Below are positions 9,444 to 20,893 of a stretch of 21,116 nt of DNA, piece after piece. Made by a program: the position numbers and the translations under genes. Source of the DNA: a virus. The notes beneath the pieces are model-generated. The model had not been told where the DNA came from. It saw nothing but the letters and a program-made list of their open reading frames with translations, and did no database searches. The DNA lies in the IMG/VR virus record IMGVR_UViG_3300028595_000066, positions 1 through 21,116 of that record; one strand, 5' to 3'. Numbering within the stretch: position 1 is the first letter of the stretch; each line of letters opens with the position of its first letter.

Positions 9444-9956
9444 TTAATCCTCCTTCATCTGGACATTTACGTTTTGAATAATCGGATTGCTCTTTCTGAC
9501 AAACAACCCGCCTTCAAAGTTTATCCGAATGATTGCCATTTCTGGACGTCTCAAGCGCCGGTCCCGTTTTTCCTGTGACCGGACAACATCATCCAGAATT
9601 ACTTTTACAGAGACCCCATTACTGTCAGGAATCCGTTTTATTTCCGTGATATTCTGTTCAAATTCCCTCAGAATACCTTCCAATATGCCTTGATCCGGTG
9701 CCCAGAAAAAACACCGAAACGTTAATACTTTTTGATATCGCTGGATTGTATAGGTGCATTGCGTATTATTTGAATCCACTTTTCGGTATACCTTCCGTGA
9801 CACCGGTTTTTTTTGATCCCTCGCAAGATCATACAGCACCGCATAATCATTATCTTTCAAAAAATCCCGTGCCATTTTCTCATAAAAGACATTGTCGTCT
9901 GAATACGGACCAAGTCGTTTAATCTGTTCATTCAACAAGGTTTGACATACATGCAT
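9444..9956 (-). CDS. Probable tail terminator / completion protein (170 aa)
   Basis: It lies between the gpG-like gene and the sheath block, where Mu-type phages encode a tail terminator. Visible features are an N-terminal helix (MHVCQTLLNEQIKRLG), a helical segment YEKMARDFLKDNDYAVLYDLARD, then beta strands with TIQRYQKVLTFRCFFWAPDQG and a final strand INFEGGLFVRKSNPI. The sequence does not match a family I can name, so the role is inferred from position and size. The ATG overlaps the upstream stop by one base (TAATG) and has only a weak upstream purine stretch (GGATGG), which suggests coupling. A minor tail protein would be the alternative. Confidence 0.65.
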   Translation of the reverse strand: MHVCQTLLNEQIKRLGPYSDDNVFYEKMARDFLKDNDYAVLYDLARDQKKPVSRKVYRKVDSNNTQCTYTIQRYQKVLTFRCFFWAPDQGILEGILREFEQNITEIKRIPDSNGVSVKVILDDVVRSQEKRDRRLRRPEMAIIRINFEGGLFVRKSNPIIQNVNVQMKED

Positions 9957-10420
9957 TATTGCACCATCCGTATAACGGCATTCATAACCTTTTCAGGCAG
10001 TTCACCTTTTACTTCCTCATAAGTGGGCTTCCATAACTTTCGTGCCGGTATTTTAGAACCATCATCATTTGGCTGTTCATGAATCATTGCAATATCAATT
10101 ACATCATCACCTTCATCGGTCTTAACGCCCCTGCGAACTCCGGTCATACCCCGAAAAGCATCAATCTGTTTTGTTGTAATATTAGAATACATCCGGTTCG
10201 TTGCCCTTAATATATCTGGATCAAGACCTTCTTTATCTTTTCGTTTTGCATATGCTTCGGTTAATGGCTCCCAGTCTAAATCCTGCTTGTCCACATGCGA
10301 TAGCACACGTGTTTCTATGGTCTTAATACCTTTTCCTACATGCTTTGACATTTCTCCGGTAAACTGATTGGCTAGTTTATCGAGCGTGGTTTGTAGTTTA
10401 CCCCAGTCGCCAGTAAGCAT
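9956..10420 (-). CDS. Virion morphogenesis / tail completion protein (Mu gpG, P2 gpS-like)
   Basis: This 154-aa, mostly helical, basic protein resembles the phage virion morphogenesis family (Mu gpG and P2 gpS type), which acts at the head-tail joint or in tail completion. Features are an early helix WGKLQTTLDKLANQF, the stretch ETRVLSHVDKQDLDWEPLTEAYAKRK (the family commonly has a W-x-P-L motif in this place), ILRATNRMYSNITTKQ, and a C-terminal PARKLWKPTYEEVKGEL. I choose the ATG at 10420 because AGAGGA lies 7 bases before it. The ATG two codons earlier (10426) sits directly against that site. Immediately upstream are the three membrane genes, which interrupt the usual head-tail order. Confidence 0.75.
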   Translation of the reverse strand: MLTGDWGKLQTTLDKLANQFTGEMSKHVGKGIKTIETRVLSHVDKQDLDWEPLTEAYAKRKDKEGLDPDILRATNRMYSNITTKQIDAFRGMTGVRRGVKTDEGDDVIDIAMIHEQPNDDGSKIPARKLWKPTYEEVKGELPEKVMNAVIRMVQ

Positions 10421-10431
10421 TTTCATTCCTC

Positions 10432-11058
10432 TTATTTTTTTAGTCTGCGTTTTTTTAAATATTTTTTCAGCGCTTGCTTTTTTCGGTTTTCCTGTCTTAA
10501 CAAAACGAGTTCTACATTTTCCGCCGTCATTAAATTGTTCATCACTGCCAGTTTGCCAAGTTTTGGCATCCTGCCACCATATGAAAGCCTGAGATTTCGC
10601 AATACAATCATATCAATAAACGTATCAACCATGATGCAATTCAATATTCGTTGTGCATGATACTCCCACAATGACCATTGTATGCCAATTTCTGGCGACA
10701 ACACTTCGTATTGACATTTCGTTAACCAACCAATTAGCAAAAACATAAACATCAACGTACTCATACATGAAAGTAAGGCCAGTCCAAACTGATACATTAT
10801 TTCTTTTCTTACACCATTAGCAGTTGAATGCAGATCAATATACATTTTCCCACACAAATACGCGACATAAGAAGCGAGAATAGCGCCCATGAAACATACC
10901 TTGACCTCAAACCAGTTTAATACAATCCTGTAATGATAATCCTCAGGATGGAGATAAGAACTTCCCAGCAAAACAAAACTACTGCCAATCATAAACCCCA
11001 TATACATCAGCTTAGCCTCATCAATAACCTCAAATATCTCACGCTTATTATTCCCCAT
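10432..11058 (-). CDS. Four-TM membrane protein of unknown function with C-terminal MshEN-like motif (membrane cassette, gene 3)
   Basis: This 208-aa protein starts MGNNKRE. About four hydrophobic segments (near residues 17-36, 49-73, 87-112 and 138-155) are followed by a cytosolic-looking, very basic tail ending KKYLKKRRLKK. The C-terminal region (residues 166-189) has a 24-residue pattern like the GspE-N/MshEN motif: Lys-Leu-Gly at positions 1-3, hydrophobic residues at 6-7 and 11-12, and Leu-x-x-Gln at the end. It is a diverged paralogue of the gene at 11326-11886: same MGN-x-x-R start, four-TM plan, Q-W-x-x-W, and 38 residues from that motif to the C-terminal one in both. The start at 11058 has GAGG 9 bases upstream; an earlier ATG (11067) abuts it. 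Its role is unknown; a superinfection-exclusion or defence-type membrane function is speculative. Confidence 0.8.
   Translation of the reverse strand: MGNNKREIFEVIDEAKLMYMGFMIGSSFVLLGSSYLHPEDYHYRIVLNWFEVKVCFMGAILASYVAYLCGKMYIDLHSTANGVRKEIMYQFGLALLSCMSTLMFMFLLIGWLTKCQYEVLSPEIGIQWSLWEYHAQRILNCIMVDTFIDMIVLRNLRLSYGGRMPKLGKLAVMNNLMTAENVELVLLRQENRKKQALKKYLKKRRLKK
10492..10563 (-). other. MshEN/GspE-N-like C-terminal motif of the 208-aa membrane protein
   Basis: 24 residues beginning Lys-Leu-Gly, with hydrophobic residues at the expected offsets and ending Leu-x-x-Gln, as in one half-motif of the c-di-GMP-binding MshEN domain. The usual Gly at position 10 is Asn here. The match is by eye. Confidence 0.35.
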
Positions 11059-11329
11059 CTGGATCATCCTCTACATATTGTAATTTCAACGAATCTCTTG
11101 CCTGTTTTAAGATCGTGCCGATTTTATCATCAATTTTCTTTTCTACAATACTTTCCAAATCATATTTCAGCTTAGTATATAAGGCCGTGTAACCCCCCAT
11201 AATCTCATTATGCATTTTGACATACAGCCCAAGTACGAGCAAAGCACAGAATACGACGACTGTATAAGCAACAGCTTTCATGAAAAGTTTCGCTGAATGC
11301 CAATTATGCTTGATATTTGTTCCACTCAT
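11048..11329 (-). CDS. Single-TM protein with coiled-coil-like tail (membrane cassette, gene 2)
   Basis: This 93-aa protein starts at the ATG at 11329, which has AGGAGA 6 bases upstream and overlaps the previous stop as ATGA. A longer ATG at 11359 lies inside that gene and has less support. Residues about 15-37 (FMKAVAYTVVVFCALLVLG) form one transmembrane helix. The rest is a charged helix (LKYDLESIVEKKIDDKIGTI) likely to form a coiled coil, with an acidic end (EDDPDGE). It lies between two paralogous four-TM genes, so it may be the partner subunit of a membrane complex. It does not resemble a known spanin (no lipobox, no periplasmic Pro-rich part). Function is unknown. Confidence 0.75.
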   Translation of the reverse strand: MSGTNIKHNWHSAKLFMKAVAYTVVVFCALLVLGLYVKMHNEIMGGYTALYTKLKYDLESIVEKKIDDKIGTILKQARDSLKLQYVEDDPDGE

Positions 11330-11886
11330 GATATCTCCTGTGCAAAATCCGATGTCCATCCGTCAAGCTCTTCTTCCAGTTTCTGCAAGTTCGCTTCAGT
11401 TATCTTTCCCATTTCCAAAGCGGTTTGCCCGAAATTTTTCAACCCTAACTTATGACTAATTCTTGCTGACAATATATTATCAAAATCAATGATTGACCCT
11501 AAGTTTCCGCCTATAAACAGGATTAATAATGCCAATTGCCATGTCGCCCATTGTTGGTCAGTTTCTATCGAAAGAGAATCATAACTTTTATTATACATCC
11601 ACTCCATCAAAAGCTCGATAAAGTATATATCGCTAATTATAATAACCACAGCACTTAAACATTTCCATGCAACGACAATTTTTAATTCATCCAAATGCCA
11701 GACCCTTAAATATTTTATCACAACCAGCACAGCAATACACACCCCTCCAGCAGCGGCAAACAGCTCCATCATAAAGATATACTCTCGAAACTGTGGACTC
11801 CCTAAATAATTATAAAGAATTGCAATACAAAAAACTAATGGTGTGCACAACCAGAGCATTAATTGTAATCTGTTTTCATTGCCCAT
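11326..11886 (-). CDS. Four-TM membrane protein of unknown function with C-terminal MshEN-like motif (membrane cassette, gene 1)
   Basis: This 186-aa protein starts MGNENR and has AGGG 7 bases before the ATG. Hydrophobic segments lie near residues 9-28, 38-60, 69-93 and 113-133. The pattern Q-W-x-x-W at residues 112-116 precedes the last one. The cytosolic-looking tail has a FGQTALEMGKITEANL stretch (151-174) resembling the GspE-N/MshEN motif, then acidic residues. It is a diverged paralogue of the 208-aa protein two genes downstream. Part of this gene is AT-rich (I count 16 G+C in 60 bases at 11581-11640), which may indicate separate acquisition. Neither protein resembles a head or tail component, although both sit in that gene cluster. 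Confidence 0.8.
   Translation of the reverse strand: MGNENRLQLMLWLCTPLVFCIAILYNYLGSPQFREYIFMMELFAAAGGVCIAVLVVIKYLRVWHLDELKIVVAWKCLSAVVIIISDIYFIELLMEWMYNKSYDSLSIETDQQWATWQLALLILFIGGNLGSIIDFDNILSARISHKLGLKNFGQTALEMGKITEANLQKLEEELDGWTSDFAQEIS
11365..11436 (-). other. MshEN/GspE-N-like C-terminal motif of the 186-aa membrane protein
   Basis: 24-residue pattern with Phe-Gly at positions 2-3, Ala-Leu at 6-7, Met-Gly at 9-10, Ile-Thr at 12-13 and Leu at 17 and 20. It has the same register as the motif in the 208-aa paralogue and lies the same 38 residues after Q-W-x-x-W. Confidence 0.35.
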
Positions 11887-11905: not shown

Positions 11906-12283
11906 TTATCTGCCTATTTCTAATATCACAATCATACGATCTTCCCTGAAATATGCCGTCTTCTGAATTGTCAGCACACTATAGGTGTGCCCTTCAAGCA
12001 CAATAACATCATCATACGTAAACGTAACGCCCATATCATCAAGCACTTTCTTACTAAAGCGCAATGTTTTCAATTCATCCACTTCATCACGACCAGCTTC
12101 CTCAACATTCATTTCACCATCAACATCAGACTCACTTTTAACCCGCCCATTCTGAACACCTGCCAATAATGGAATATCACCACTCGAACGTCGTAAAATA
12201 ACAGGATACTTAATAAACGTATCGCAAATATCCTGCATTACAGATAGAAACTGATTTGTATCCTGCTCCGAAAGTAAATCCAT
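11906..12283 (-). CDS. Probable head-tail connector / stopper protein (125 aa)
   Basis: This is the second small gene after the major capsid gene, the usual place for head completion proteins. The N-terminal half is helical (EQDTNQFLSVMQDICDTF), the middle is acidic (SDVDGEMNVEEAGRDEVDEL), and the C-terminal half is beta-rich (VTFTYDDVIVLEGHTYSVLT, EDRMIVILEIG), as in head-closure or stopper proteins. Family is not recognised with certainty. Its ATG follows the TAA of the preceding gene with no gap, and the ribosome binding site is weak, so translation is probably coupled. The membrane cassette starts just after it. Confidence 0.6.
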   Translation of the reverse strand: MDLLSEQDTNQFLSVMQDICDTFIKYPVILRRSSGDIPLLAGVQNGRVKSESDVDGEMNVEEAGRDEVDELKTLRFSKKVLDDMGVTFTYDDVIVLEGHTYSVLTIQKTAYFREDRMIVILEIGR

Positions 12284-14604: not shown

Positions 14605-15267
14605 AATCTTTTCATCTCCTTTGTTTGTAAATTTTTTTGCATAAGGGTCTTCACCTTCCCAGACCACAGATACCTCGTAAACATTCTTAATTTCTGTCAC
14701 AATCAATCTGACAAGCTGACCATCAATATCTTTCCCGATATAATCCCCATAGTAGTGGAGATCGGGATGGCTTTTTTCATAAGCAAACGTCAAGGTAGCA
14801 GAAAAGGAGTGAAGCGCGCCAATATCGAACCCGCGACATAGCTTTGAATCGGCCGTCCGATCCAATGTCACCAGTGCGTTAATACCTTCCGGCTTATTTT
14901 CTTCGTCCCATTCAGAATTTGATACAAATCCTTTCCAGTCTTCCACGCTGGCCCAATGATCTGCATATACTGTCCGCCTGTTAAACAAAGGCACGGCTTT
15001 TTTCAAAACGCCATCCCTCGTAAAGTCAAAATATCTGGACTGTGTTACTGCCTTAGAAAGCATCCTGCCCTTGATCAGTAAAAATTCTTCTGCATTAACA
15101 CCGGCTGCCTCTTCATCCGTGACAGCAAGTTTAAAATCTCCAATTTCGGATACATTACCGGTCAATCCTCCCAGGTTCAGTCGTGCCCGAACAAGCCCTT
15201 CTTTCTTTTCTTCACCAATATATTCAAAGCCATTCAAAGCCAATCGGTCTGTTTTTTGGTTACTCAT
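14158..15267 (-). CDS. Prohead protease with C-terminal scaffold (Mu gpI/S78-like)
   Basis: This 369-aa protein should cleave head proteins during maturation. The N-terminal ~220 residues are the protease, with candidate catalytic His104 (YADHWASVEDW), Ser154/Ser156 (ALHSFSATLTF) and the EVSVVWEGEDP segment near 198, which corresponds to the ExSxVxxPA motif of S78-type proteases. The C-terminal ~148 residues are the scaffold with a nested start (see 14158-14604). The ATG at 15267 overlaps the portal stop as ATGA. A GGAG lies only 2 bases from it, so initiation is probably coupled. An in-frame ATG at 15294 lacks a binding site. The portal, protease and capsid order is classical. Confidence 0.85.
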   Translation of the reverse strand: MSNQKTDRLALNGFEYIGEEKKEGLVRARLNLGGLTGNVSEIGDFKLAVTDEEAAGVNAEEFLLIKGRMLSKAVTQSRYFDFTRDGVLKKAVPLFNRRTVYADHWASVEDWKGFVSNSEWDEENKPEGINALVTLDRTADSKLCRGFDIGALHSFSATLTFAYEKSHPDLHYYGDYIGKDIDGQLVRLIVTEIKNVYEVSVVWEGEDPYAKKFTNKGDEKIMSIKLSNALKEALGVKVAQVEESELESLVTGRLKVLEDEKEQLASEKAALMSDAETGKKYLEDMREKALAAYQAVKGDKASPVYTEHVIKPASLETAKAILEEYSEKLESQMPLTCPKCGEKLSRQSSQAEDPNAGAPKRDKSDFKLK

Positions 15268-17441
15268 ATCTCCGCTGCCTTTCGATGCCGACATTCAGGA
15301 TGATAAGGAGGCGTTTCAAACCCCGCTGCCTGTAATTCAGCATCGCTTATGTTTTTTAATTGTTCTACTGTATATTTTTTTGTAAGGAATGGCGGCAAAT
15401 CATTCACATCTTCAAATCCTTTTTTTACAAGTTTTGCCAGTCGAAGTGCAGCCACTTCCACCTCAAAAACACGGCCCAACATCTCCTTGCAATGATCACA
15501 GATCGGCCCGCGTGTCGGTCCCACAATGCGATATCTCACAAAACCAGATTCATACAAATTCAATGTTTGGCCAAAGTTTTGTATCCTACCCACTGTCGTA
15601 TTCACCAACTGATTTATTTTTTGCCAGCTCACATTATCCACAATATCTGCAAACCGACTTTCAAATTCTTCTATAGTGTTCTCATCACGAAGGCTTAAAC
15701 CCTTTTCAAGATATTCCTTTTCCAACCAGTTGACCAACTGCTTACCAGTTTTGGATTCATTGTCTGCAATATAATTCCCTGCACCAAAGTAGTAATGATC
15801 CATTGATGTCAGATATCTCACCGCATTACTGTCTGTCAGACCAATATCCAGTTTTAACGATGCCGCTTTAAACGTGTTCAGTCCGTCCTTGCGATAGTAA
15901 TTATACATGTCATTCACATACCGAATCACAATATCATCAACGCTCAGATTAGCCTTCAGTGTTTTTGCAAACGCGGTAAACACAGCCTTTGAAAATGCTT
16001 TTTCATCCTTGACACGTTCAGGGATTGCACGAACCCCTGCGCGAACCGCTGCAATTTCTGCAATATGCATCTGTTGTCGAAGTTCATTCCGATATGTATT
16101 TTCAAAGCCTGACCCGCTAACAGATAACTGTTCAGGCTTATGAACATAAAGTCCTTTTTTGGCATCATAAGCAAATGCGACCGGTGATTTCTTTTCTCCG
16201 GTCGCTCCCATGTATCCAAGTTCTTGTGCTGCCTCATCATCTGAAATAAATCCAGCATCACGCTTCTTAACCACATTATCTATCCGAATCGTTTCAGTTT
16301 CTGCCTTTTCTTTTTCTTTGAATCCAGTATACTCGCTGAATGTCAGTCGAACAGAATCAACAGGTATCCCTACAAGCTGCAAATCAAGCTGGTACCCTTT
16401 TTCAATGAATCTTTTTACGATTCGCCTGAAATTCCTTAACCGTCCCATCAAACGATCATAGTCTACTCCGGCATAAGTTTCTGTGGTAGAATAACTGCGC
16501 CCCATCATCGAAGGTGGAATATCAAAGGCGCTCATAATCTGCTCTTCATTAATTTGAAAAATTATCTTTGCAGCGGATGCCGCTGTCTGGGATATAGAGT
16601 GATGACTGATCTCCTGATCATCAAAATGAACCGCAACCCCTTCTGAAAGGCTTTTTGCGTAGGATGCTGCATAGGTTTTCAAGTGTTTAATCAGTCGCTG
16701 TTGATAGGCATCCAGGTTTTCGCCTGGTAGTTGGTGCGGCTGTGTTAGCTTTACTGTCGTTATACCTAACATACCAATTTTTCGAACGATTGCAGCAAAG
16801 TTTCTAACCGCATCAATCTGAACATCCAAGTTCTTCATAGCTGCCAGCATCAACGGAATACCATAAGGATTATTATCCAGTGTCTTCAAAGGCGTATAAG
16901 AGAAGGTTAACGGATTTAAGGCCACAAAATTTTCTCGAAACCCTTTTCCTGTATCCTGATAAGGCATCCATGCCCCATCTTCCAGACGAAAACGGATTGA
17001 TCTGACCGGTGGCGTAACTGCCCGAACAATGCCATCACTAACTTGATCCGCGACCACCCATTCACCAGACAAAGCGCCCATCAACGCCACCTGTGTCAAC
17101 ATATGATTAATCAAACCATCGGCGCCGCCATTATAAACATTTCTGGCAAGCGTATTGATTCGTTCCAAAGCAGCTTCTGTGCGGCCCCCATTAATTTCTA
17201 TTTCATGACCGCTATTCCCCAGTGTCGTTATAATAGACAATGCCTGACTCACGTCCGGATTAAACATGGAAAGCATTTCCAGGATATCCAGATAAGCAGG
17301 ATCAAAAGGATACGCTTTGACTTCATAAAATCCTTTAATCCGAGAATACGCGCCATTAATCCCCGGCTCTATCTCGCTCACATGACCAGGCGCAATAGAA
17401 ATCACTGGCTGTTTCTTTTTGAATCGAAACCACTTCTTCAT
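15264..17441 (-). CDS. Portal protein fused to MuF-type head morphogenesis domain
   Basis: This 725-aa protein combines two roles usually on separate genes. Residues about 30-430 are the portal (dodecameric DNA entry pore): NPDVSQALSI, TYAASYAKSLSEGVAVHF, NEEQIMSAFDIPPSMMGRSYSTTETYAGVDYDRLM and the later LTFSEYTGFKEKEKAETE are portal-like. Residues about 540-720 carry the MuF/SPP1 gp7-like minor head domain, with the conserved G-P-x-x-G-P-x-C-x-x-C (Cys648, Cys651), L-G-R-V-F and P-P-Y-H-P-x-C-R-H-R (His714, Cys717, His719) signature. The large terminase stop overlaps this ATG as ATGA. Portal and MuF genes are normally adjacent, so a fusion keeps their order. Confidence 0.88.
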   Translation of the reverse strand: MKKWFRFKKKQPVISIAPGHVSEIEPGINGAYSRIKGFYEVKAYPFDPAYLDILEMLSMFNPDVSQALSIITTLGNSGHEIEINGGRTEAALERINTLARNVYNGGADGLINHMLTQVALMGALSGEWVVADQVSDGIVRAVTPPVRSIRFRLEDGAWMPYQDTGKGFRENFVALNPLTFSYTPLKTLDNNPYGIPLMLAAMKNLDVQIDAVRNFAAIVRKIGMLGITTVKLTQPHQLPGENLDAYQQRLIKHLKTYAASYAKSLSEGVAVHFDDQEISHHSISQTAASAAKIIFQINEEQIMSAFDIPPSMMGRSYSTTETYAGVDYDRLMGRLRNFRRIVKRFIEKGYQLDLQLVGIPVDSVRLTFSEYTGFKEKEKAETETIRIDNVVKKRDAGFISDDEAAQELGYMGATGEKKSPVAFAYDAKKGLYVHKPEQLSVSGSGFENTYRNELRQQMHIAEIAAVRAGVRAIPERVKDEKAFSKAVFTAFAKTLKANLSVDDIVIRYVNDMYNYYRKDGLNTFKAASLKLDIGLTDSNAVRYLTSMDHYYFGAGNYIADNESKTGKQLVNWLEKEYLEKGLSLRDENTIEEFESRFADIVDNVSWQKINQLVNTTVGRIQNFGQTLNLYESGFVRYRIVGPTRGPICDHCKEMLGRVFEVEVAALRLAKLVKKGFEDVNDLPPFLTKKYTVEQLKNISDAELQAAGFETPPYHPECRHRKAAEI

Positions 17442-18979: not shown

Positions 18980-19054
18980 TGGATGCGGGAAGCGGACTTG
19001 AACCGCCATCGTCAGGGATATGAACCCTGCATGTTACCATTACAACATCCCGCG
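18980..19054 (-). tRNA. tRNA with CAT anticodon, initiator-like (tRNA-fMet candidate)
   Basis: This 75-nt cloverleaf is on the minus strand. Acceptor arms CGCGGGA and TCCCGCA pair at six of seven positions and leave C1-A72 unpaired. The anticodon stem is CAGGG/CCCTG with loop TTCATAT, so the anticodon is CAT. The T-arm is GGCGG-TTCAAGT-CCGCT, and CCA is encoded. C1-A72 and three G-C pairs next to the anticodon loop (GGG/CCC) are the accepted hallmarks of bacterial initiator tRNA. Against this, the D-stem 11-24 pair is U-A rather than A-U, the stem has only three pairs, and position 73 is U, where initiators have A. It could be an elongator Met, an Ile tRNA (lysidine type) or a Gly-like backbone with a changed anticodon. 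It lies directly before the large terminase gene in the same transcript. Confidence 0.9.
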
Positions 19055-19062
19055 ATATAAAA

Positions 19063-19404
19063 TTACTTCTTATTCCGCAATACCTGTGTTTCAATTCGTG
19101 CCGAAACCACTTCTTTCAACCCACCATACACACCTTCAATAATTCCGCCAACTTTGCCATCAACCATTTCCAAAGCCATCGCTACCGCACGATCCTTGAT
19201 ATCTCTTTTGCCTGTATCATTCCACTGCCCCATATTTTTCATTTCTTTCTTCACAGTCTGTTCAAGATTGGCAACAACCATCTCAACCACATAGTCCAAA
19301 AATGAATTAGCAGCGAGTACCATCCCTGCATTGCCATATTTCTTTGCAGCAAAAAACAAGATAACTGCGACGATAGAGATACAAACTAAAGTCATTAAGC
19401 TCAT
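19063..19404 (-). CDS. Single-TM small protein, possible holin (LLH-like)
   Basis: This 113-aa protein starts MSLMTLVCISIVAVILFF, a short N-terminal transmembrane segment of about 18 residues. It continues as charged helices (VANLEQTVKKEMKNMG, RDIKDRAVAMALEMVDGKVG). The arrangement resembles phage holins of the LLH type, one TM plus a helical tail, but the match is only by general pattern. The start overlaps the small terminase stop as ATGA. A lysis gene between the two terminase genes would be unusual, although the endolysin lies just upstream. It could equally be a membrane protein unrelated to lysis. Confidence 0.5.
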   Translation of the reverse strand: MSLMTLVCISIVAVILFFAAKKYGNAGMVLAANSFLDYVVEMVVANLEQTVKKEMKNMGQWNDTGKRDIKDRAVAMALEMVDGKVGGIIEGVYGGLKEVVSARIETQVLRNKK

Positions 19405-20341: not shown

Positions 20342-20893
20342 TTACTCCAATATTCTTTCTTTTTCTGTTGGCCATCGTATAGCCACCAAATCACTCACTT
20401 TGTAATAACTAATCTTTATTTGATCAGATTGGTTACAGCCAATACATGCGTAGTATTCCACTCCATTTCGTTTAACCACTTCACCGGAAACCATAACAGT
20501 CACGTGGTAACCAGACCCTTGACGAAACACGCAAACCGCACCTGCCTTAATTCCTACAGGCGCACCCCATGTTTTAAAACTCTCAGCAATGGCACTTCCT
20601 GTGCCTTTGATTCGCACCTCGGCCAATATTTTATTAAAACCACTCGTACACCAACTGGTCTTGTTATCATCCCATAATGATGGATCTAACTTACAGAGCC
20701 TGTATGATCCGACAATCCACTGATTATTTTCCGGCCCTTCAGTTTCGGCTAAGCCCTCATATATTTTCAATTGATCCAGCCATACCGGATTATCTTCATA
20801 GATATAATCAGGCTGAATATGCCAATACCCTGTTATAAGCAAAAGCGTCACAGCGATTGAAACCATCAAGACGCTAAATTGTTTCCGTGTCAT
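20342..20893 (-). CDS. Endolysin, TIGR02594-type Cys/His hydrolase with N-terminal signal anchor
   Basis: This 183-aa protein should degrade peptidoglycan. Its C-terminal domain matches the TIGR02594 pattern: WCTSGF with candidate catalytic Cys82, then KGTGSAIAESFKTWGAPVG, CVFRQGSGYHVTVM with His130, CNQSDQIKIS and a final RWP. The N-terminus (about residues 6-23, FSVLMVSIAVTLLLITGY) is a single hydrophobic anchor, so it may be a SAR (signal-arrest-release) endolysin exported by Sec and activated on holin-triggered membrane depolarisation. This is typical of phages of Gram-negative hosts. AGGAGAGG just upstream makes the start certain. Confidence 0.85.
   Translation of the reverse strand: MTRKQFSVLMVSIAVTLLLITGYWHIQPDYIYEDNPVWLDQLKIYEGLAETEGPENNQWIVGSYRLCKLDPSLWDDNKTSWCTSGFNKILAEVRIKGTGSAIAESFKTWGAPVGIKAGAVCVFRQGSGYHVTVMVSGEVVKRNGVEYYACIGCNQSDQIKISYYKVSDLVAIRWPTEKERILE

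What the first reader, a model, noticed from the sequence alone, without database searches (positions are those of the whole stretch)
10432..11886. Three-gene membrane cassette with two diverged paralogues, inserted in the head-tail junction genes
Two proteins with the same plan flank a single-TM coiled-coil protein. Both start MGN-x-x-R, have about four hydrophobic segments, carry Q-W-x-x-W, and have the C-terminal motif exactly 38 residues further on. None looks like a virion part, yet they sit between the head-tail connector and the gpG-like tail completion gene. The genes overlap or nearly touch, so they form one translational unit. Part of the first gene is AT-rich (16 G+C in 60 bases at 11581-11640, counted). 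A membrane-located phage system, such as superinfection exclusion, host takeover or lysis timing, is the most attractive explanation. It does not match a defence or exclusion system I can name.
Basis: partly seen in the sequence, partly recalled or inferred. Interest (0 to 1): 0.75.

Follow-up and report, generated by a model that had tools for sequence, protein, structure and literature searches.

The report
Extra membrane-gene trio in phage operon
A Mu-like bacterial virus carries three extra, mutually overlapping membrane-protein genes, two of them ancient duplicates of each other, slotted cleanly between two virion-assembly genes that touch in all 28 checkable relatives; they are probably optional cargo that acts on the host cell membrane, but they match no known family and their job is untested.

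Summary
Three minus-strand genes (P1 11326-11886, P2 11048-11329, P3 10432-11058) overlap each other and abut the neck gene. P1 and P3 are true paralogues: a gapless 90-residue alignment spans the QWxxW and C-terminal motifs and beats 5999 of 6000 shuffles. In 28 of 28 relatives with both flanking genes, those genes are at most 50 bases apart, often overlapping as TGATG; here they are 1479 bases apart. The trio is therefore a clean, lineage-specific insertion and not a core virion part. Profile, phage, plasmid, PDB and sampled-genome searches found no homologue, and AlphaFold models are poor (pLDDT 46-48). The phage has its own lysis-type genes elsewhere. Best reading: moron-type cargo, co-expressed with late structural genes, encoding a hetero-oligomeric inner-membrane complex that most likely excludes or disables rival phages, RexB/Butters-gp31-like in topology only. 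Insertion and duplication are solid; function is inference.

The parts
11906..12283 (-). upstream flank: connector-like gene (125 aa), the gene next to the neck gene in relatives
   Evidence: 23-34% identical homologues directly before the neck gene in 28 relatives; no profile hit; role inferred from position
11326..11886 (-). P1, 186 aa orphan membrane protein; four plausible TM segments (about 10-30, 42-62, 70-90, 112-132), QWATW at the start of the fourth, cytoplasmic acidic tail (inferred)
   Evidence: paralogue of P3; no family hit
11048..11329 (-). P2, 93 aa, single N-terminal TM segment (19-39), basic N-terminus, 54-residue tail predicted outside; ATG overlaps the P1 stop (ATGA), AGGAG upstream
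   Evidence: the longest possible ORF starts at 11359
10432..11058 (-). P3, 208 aa orphan membrane protein and paralogue of P1; three convincing TM segments plus a degenerate fourth, QWSLW, strongly basic C-terminal tail
   Evidence: overlaps the P2 end by 11 nt
9956..10426 (-). downstream flank: Neck1/tail completion gene, ATG 5 nt after the P3 stop
   Evidence: PHROG 26 E 1.3e-5; 50-59% identical homologues in close relatives

Best explanation
An accessory (moron-type) three-gene membrane cassette has been inserted as a unit between two neighbouring virion-assembly genes of a Mu-like contractile-tailed phage, and is read as part of that late operon by coupled translation. P1 and P3 arose by duplication and probably form a hetero-oligomer in the inner membrane. 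Their cytoplasmic tails carry opposite charge (P1 acidic, P3 basic), and P2, with one TM segment, adds a tail on the outside. Most likely the complex changes the host membrane during late infection so that competing phages are excluded or the cell is disabled, in the manner of four-TM prophage proteins such as RexB or Butters gp31. Shown: insertion, duplication, gene overlap, absence from relatives, hydrophobic segments. Inferred: late expression, complex formation, topology, exclusion or takeover function.
For: Insertion: con125 to neck gap at most 50 nt in 28/28 relatives against 1479 nt here, stop and start often overlapping as TGATG. Relatives with 53-69% identical capsid proteins do without the trio, so it is not needed for the shared virion plan. 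Duplication. Overlapping genes with Shine-Dalgarno-like motifs and no promoter or terminator excess imply co-expression with the structural genes. A temperate Mu-like clade is suggested by rve-type transposase matches in 6 of 12 longer relatives. Other relatives carry different inserts in the same block, several with N-terminal signal or membrane segments (L024, L025, L039), so this block accepts envelope-directed cargo. Precedent for four-TM prophage defence proteins: PMC7542560, PMC6426596.
Against: No homologue of known function, no confident structure and no expression data. Classical exclusion morons have their own promoter and are expressed in the lysogen; none was detected here. P3 may have only three TM helices. 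RexB and Butters gp31 partners are soluble proteins, not a second paralogue plus a one-TM protein, and no sequence similarity to them was tested directly.
Confidence: 0.35

Rival explanations
1. Lysis accessory: P1/P3 act as a holin/antiholin-like pair that sets the time of lysis, with P2 as an inner-membrane spanin-like protein.
For: Late-operon position; small multi-TM proteins in two related versions; P2 has the N-in, one-TM, outside-tail plan of an inner-membrane spanin.
Against: A holin-like gene (PHROG 13712 E 1.7e-4) and a lysozyme/peptidase-type gene with an N-terminal TM lie at 19063-19404 and 20342-20893, where relatives also keep lysis-like genes. No lipobox ORF for an outer-membrane partner on the minus strand of the window. 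No holin profile hit for P1 or P3.
Confidence: 0.2
2. Morphogenesis or virion factor: the trio tethers head or neck assembly to the membrane, or is packaged and acts during DNA entry.
For: Sits next to, and is translationally coupled with, the neck gene.
Against: 28 of 28 relatives build the same connector and neck without it; no structural-family match.
Confidence: 0.15
3. Anti-defence: the membrane proteins block a membrane-acting host defence system.
For: Restricted to one lineage, as counter-defence genes often are; membrane location.
Against: Counter-defence genes are usually expressed early, whereas this unit is embedded in a late operon; no family hit (which covers defence but not anti-defence proteins).
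Confidence: 0.15
4. Neutral or decaying hitch-hiker genes without a present function.
For: Single known occurrence; P3 fourth segment degenerate.
Against: Three intact, overlapping ORFs with ribosome-binding motifs; motifs conserved between the diverged paralogues.
Confidence: 0.08

Closest known systems
Phage morons (accessory genes inserted between genes that are adjacent in relatives)
   Same: Clean insertion between two genes that touch in all checked relatives; absent from the rest of the clade
   Different: No own promoter or terminator above chance, no compositional contrast at third codon positions, and coupled translation with the late operon
Four-TM prophage exclusion proteins (lambda RexB; Butters gp31; Sbash gp30/gp31 system)
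   Same: Small multi-TM phage-encoded membrane proteins working, in the known cases, with a partner encoded next to them (PMC7542560, PMC6426596)
   Different: Here two paralogous multi-TM proteins plus a one-TM protein; position in the structural operon instead of the lysogenically expressed region; no profile match
Holin/antiholin and spanin lysis proteins
   Same: Late-operon membrane proteins; P2 has the plan of an inner-membrane spanin
   Different: Separate lysis-type genes are present; no holin profile; no outer-membrane lipoprotein partner found
MshEN cyclic di-GMP motif
   Same: P3 tail KLGKLAVMNNLMTAENVELVLLRQ meets 10 of 11 constrained positions of the published relaxed motif (PMC5013675)
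   Different: Fails the G/A/S position; the aligned P1 stretch fails 3; 4% of P3 shuffles do as well; MshEN needs two tandem copies; no Pfam match

Membership tests
Moron-type accessory insertion | extra gene(s) between two genes that are adjacent in relatives | tested here: met
   1479 nt against at most 50 nt in 28/28 relatives
Moron-type accessory insertion | own promoter and terminator | tested here: not met
   promoter-like sites 17 against 13.8 expected, terminators 2 against 2.8 and none on the gene strand; only sigma-70-like consensus was scanned
Moron-type accessory insertion | base composition or codon usage differs from the phage | tested here: not met
   GC3 and codon fit within the range of the other genes
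Four-TM prophage exclusion protein (RexB/Butters gp31 type) | four TM helices | tested here: inconclusive
   P1 four plausible; P3 three clear and one degenerate
Four-TM prophage exclusion protein (RexB/Butters gp31 type) | sequence homology to a characterised member | tested here: not met
   no Pfam, PHROGs, NCBIfam or PADLOC match and no tblastn hit in 50,697 phage records up to E 10
Four-TM prophage exclusion protein (RexB/Butters gp31 type) | protects the carrier cell against other phages | not testable with these tools
   needs a plating assay
Holin/antiholin | profile match to a holin family | tested here: not met
   none for P1 or P3; the holin-like gene of this phage is at 19063-19404
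Two-component spanin (P2 as inner-membrane part) | adjacent or embedded outer-membrane lipoprotein gene | tested here: not met
   no lipobox ORF of 30 aa or more on the minus strand of the window
MshEN cyclic di-GMP receptor | two tandem 24-residue motifs | tested here: not met
   one near-match in P3 with one violation, three violations in P1; no Pfam hit
Core virion/assembly gene | conserved at this place across relatives | tested here: not met
   absent in 28/28

The most novel reading that the evidence does not exclude
A previously undescribed protein family whose two diverged copies and a single-TM partner form a three-part membrane machine carried by a Mu-like phage, giving late-infection exclusion of competitors by altering the host inner membrane.
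Probability: 0.25. Interest if true: 0.6.

Novelty: new member of a known kind. Interest (0 to 1): 0.38.

Why it matters
If the trio works as an exclusion or takeover complex, it would add a new protein family and a three-part design to phage-encoded membrane systems. It would also show that the connector/neck block of this Mu-like clade is a recurrent place for envelope-directed cargo, a spot that searches around integrase, early or lysis genes overlook. If it proves neutral, it is one more orphan accessory insertion, which is common in phages.

Tried and rejected
Homologue searches that gave nothing: viral-contig scans with P1, P2 and P3, a P1 scan of the genome collection (40 pattern hits, none confirmed), tblastn in phages and plasmids, PDB sequences, the paralogue profile over 26 relatives' records and 395 genomes, P1 over 297, P3 over 85, P2 over 389 (two hits at E 0.004-0.007, expected by chance with 389 genomes). 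A DNA pattern for E-x3-QW-x2-W-x16-ID gave 44 viral stretches; the best score against P1 was 47 and against P3 45, against 78 between the paralogues, so these were taken as chance. These scans need exact short peptides or use loose first looks, so distant relatives may be missed, and no positive control genome was available. MshEN motif: rejected. Spanin reading of P2: no partner. Foreign DNA from low G+C: rejected, explained by hydrophobic codons. Fold search was not run because both models are below pLDDT 50. ExbB/MotA-type motor pairs were considered from general knowledge only: the P1 loop between TM2 and TM3 is too short for that fold, and no profile matched. Assembly chimera considered: unlikely, since the genes overlap or abut on both sides and codon usage is that of the phage. 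The closest relative by TerL/MCP (L037, 76% and 82%) ends inside the capsid gene and cannot show whether it has the trio.

Full report
What the window is. The record is a 21,116-base viral contig of IMG/VR. Its minus strand carries a Mu-like contractile-tail structural module: lysozyme/peptidase-type gene, DUF1804-like gene, holin-like gene, tRNA-Met, large terminase, portal, protease, decoration-like protein, major capsid protein, two connector-like genes (con126, con125), the trio, Neck1/tail completion, two small genes, DUF2586 tail sheath, tail tube, tape measure and baseplate genes. FP_Mushu, a phage with a related sheath, shows the same order without the trio.

The trio itself. P1 (11326-11886, 186 aa), P2 (11048-11329, 93 aa from the ATG that overlaps the P1 stop; the longest ORF starts at 11359) and P3 (10432-11058, 208 aa) overlap by 4 and 11 nt, and the neck ATG follows the P3 stop by 5 nt. 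P1 and P3 both begin MGNxxR and align without a gap over 90 residues that hold QWxxW and the C-terminal motif; the score of 78 compares with 33-37 in shuffles, reached once in 6000. The two proteins are therefore diverged duplicates (23% identity). A simple insertion-energy scan gives four segments for P1, one for P2, and three for P3 with a degenerate fourth. Loop charges fit N-in/C-in for P1 and N-in/C-out for P2 (inference). The C-terminal tails have opposite charge: P1 net -3 over its last 47 residues, P3 net +13 over its last 54, which would suit pairing of the two tails (inference).

It is an insertion. A capsid-protein alignment (A1) brought in 79 viral and 80 genome loci; the closest genome loci are from Desulfobacterota metagenome assemblies, so that is the likely host group. 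In all 28 loci that hold both flanking genes, con125 and the neck gene are at most 50 nt apart (median 5); in the window the distance is 1479 nt. In many of them the stop and start overlap as TGATG or TAATG. None of the fetched loci contains P1, P2 or P3. The insert has the codon usage and GC3 of the phage, so its lower G+C reflects its hydrophobic residues; either it is old or it came from a similar genome.

Other inserts in the same block. Relatives carry different extra genes near the same junction: L024 has a 122-aa protein with an N-terminal hydrophobic signal between con126 and con125; L027 has two proteins of 375 and 759 aa there; L025 and L039 have about 4 kb of large proteins, mostly with N-terminal signal segments, before the 90-aa gene ahead of the sheath. 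The block thus seems to accept cargo repeatedly, and four of the five cargo sets seen, the window's included, look membrane- or export-directed. The clade is probably temperate: 6 of 12 longer relatives match a DDE transposase domain, weakly, within open frames of 542-616 aa; the window is a fragment and does not show this gene.

What it is not. No Pfam, PHROGs, NCBIfam or PADLOC model matches, nor any phage or plasmid record or PDB chain. Sampled Desulfobacterota genomes gave no credible hit. These negatives are limited by the search methods. Structure models had pLDDT 46.5 and 47.8 and cannot be used beyond saying that both are helical. A look-alike of the cyclic di-GMP MshEN motif in the P3 tail failed the published definition.

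Mechanism. The trio is not needed for the shared virion plan, is membrane-located by sequence and is co-translated with late genes. A hetero-oligomeric membrane complex acting on the host late in infection is the reading that best fits. Among such functions I favour exclusion or disabling of competitors, by analogy with four-TM prophage defence proteins (PMC7542560 and PMC6426596), because separate lysis-type genes exist and the core assembly genes work without the trio elsewhere. This choice between functions rests on inference, and confidence is 0.35. Lysis regulation, an assembly or virion role and anti-defence remain open.

Verdict. A real, well-delimited accessory insertion with a genuine internal gene duplication and orphan proteins. 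Accessory orphan cassettes in phages are common, so the novelty lies in the protein family and the position more than in the kind of system.

Noticed in passing
L025:10857-15376 and L039:10925-14859: About 4 kb of large collagen-like, beta-helix-like or fibre-like proteins with N-terminal Sec-type signal segments sit inside the tail-junction genes of two relatives; exported fibre-like proteins in a structural operon are odd.
   Followed up: partly
L027:10061-13467: Two proteins (375 and 759 aa, the second resembling a glycosidase with repeat regions by eye) are inserted between con126 and con125.
   Followed up: no
L024:9439-9807: A 122-aa protein with an N-terminal hydrophobic signal is inserted between con126 and con125.
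   Followed up: no
18980-19054: A tRNA-Met gene (ARAGORN and Rfam agree) lies within the structural operon between the holin-like and large terminase genes.
   Followed up: partly
15264-17441: The portal protein (725 aa) has a C-terminal extension that weakly matches head morphogenesis and maturation-protease families, so it may be a portal/minor-head fusion; the same gene length is seen in relatives.
   Followed up: no
L037:149-583 and window:20342-20893: The closest relative (TerL 76%) has an M15-peptidase-like gene (by eye) where the window has a different lysozyme/peptidase-type gene, so the lysis module is exchanged between close relatives.
   Followed up: no
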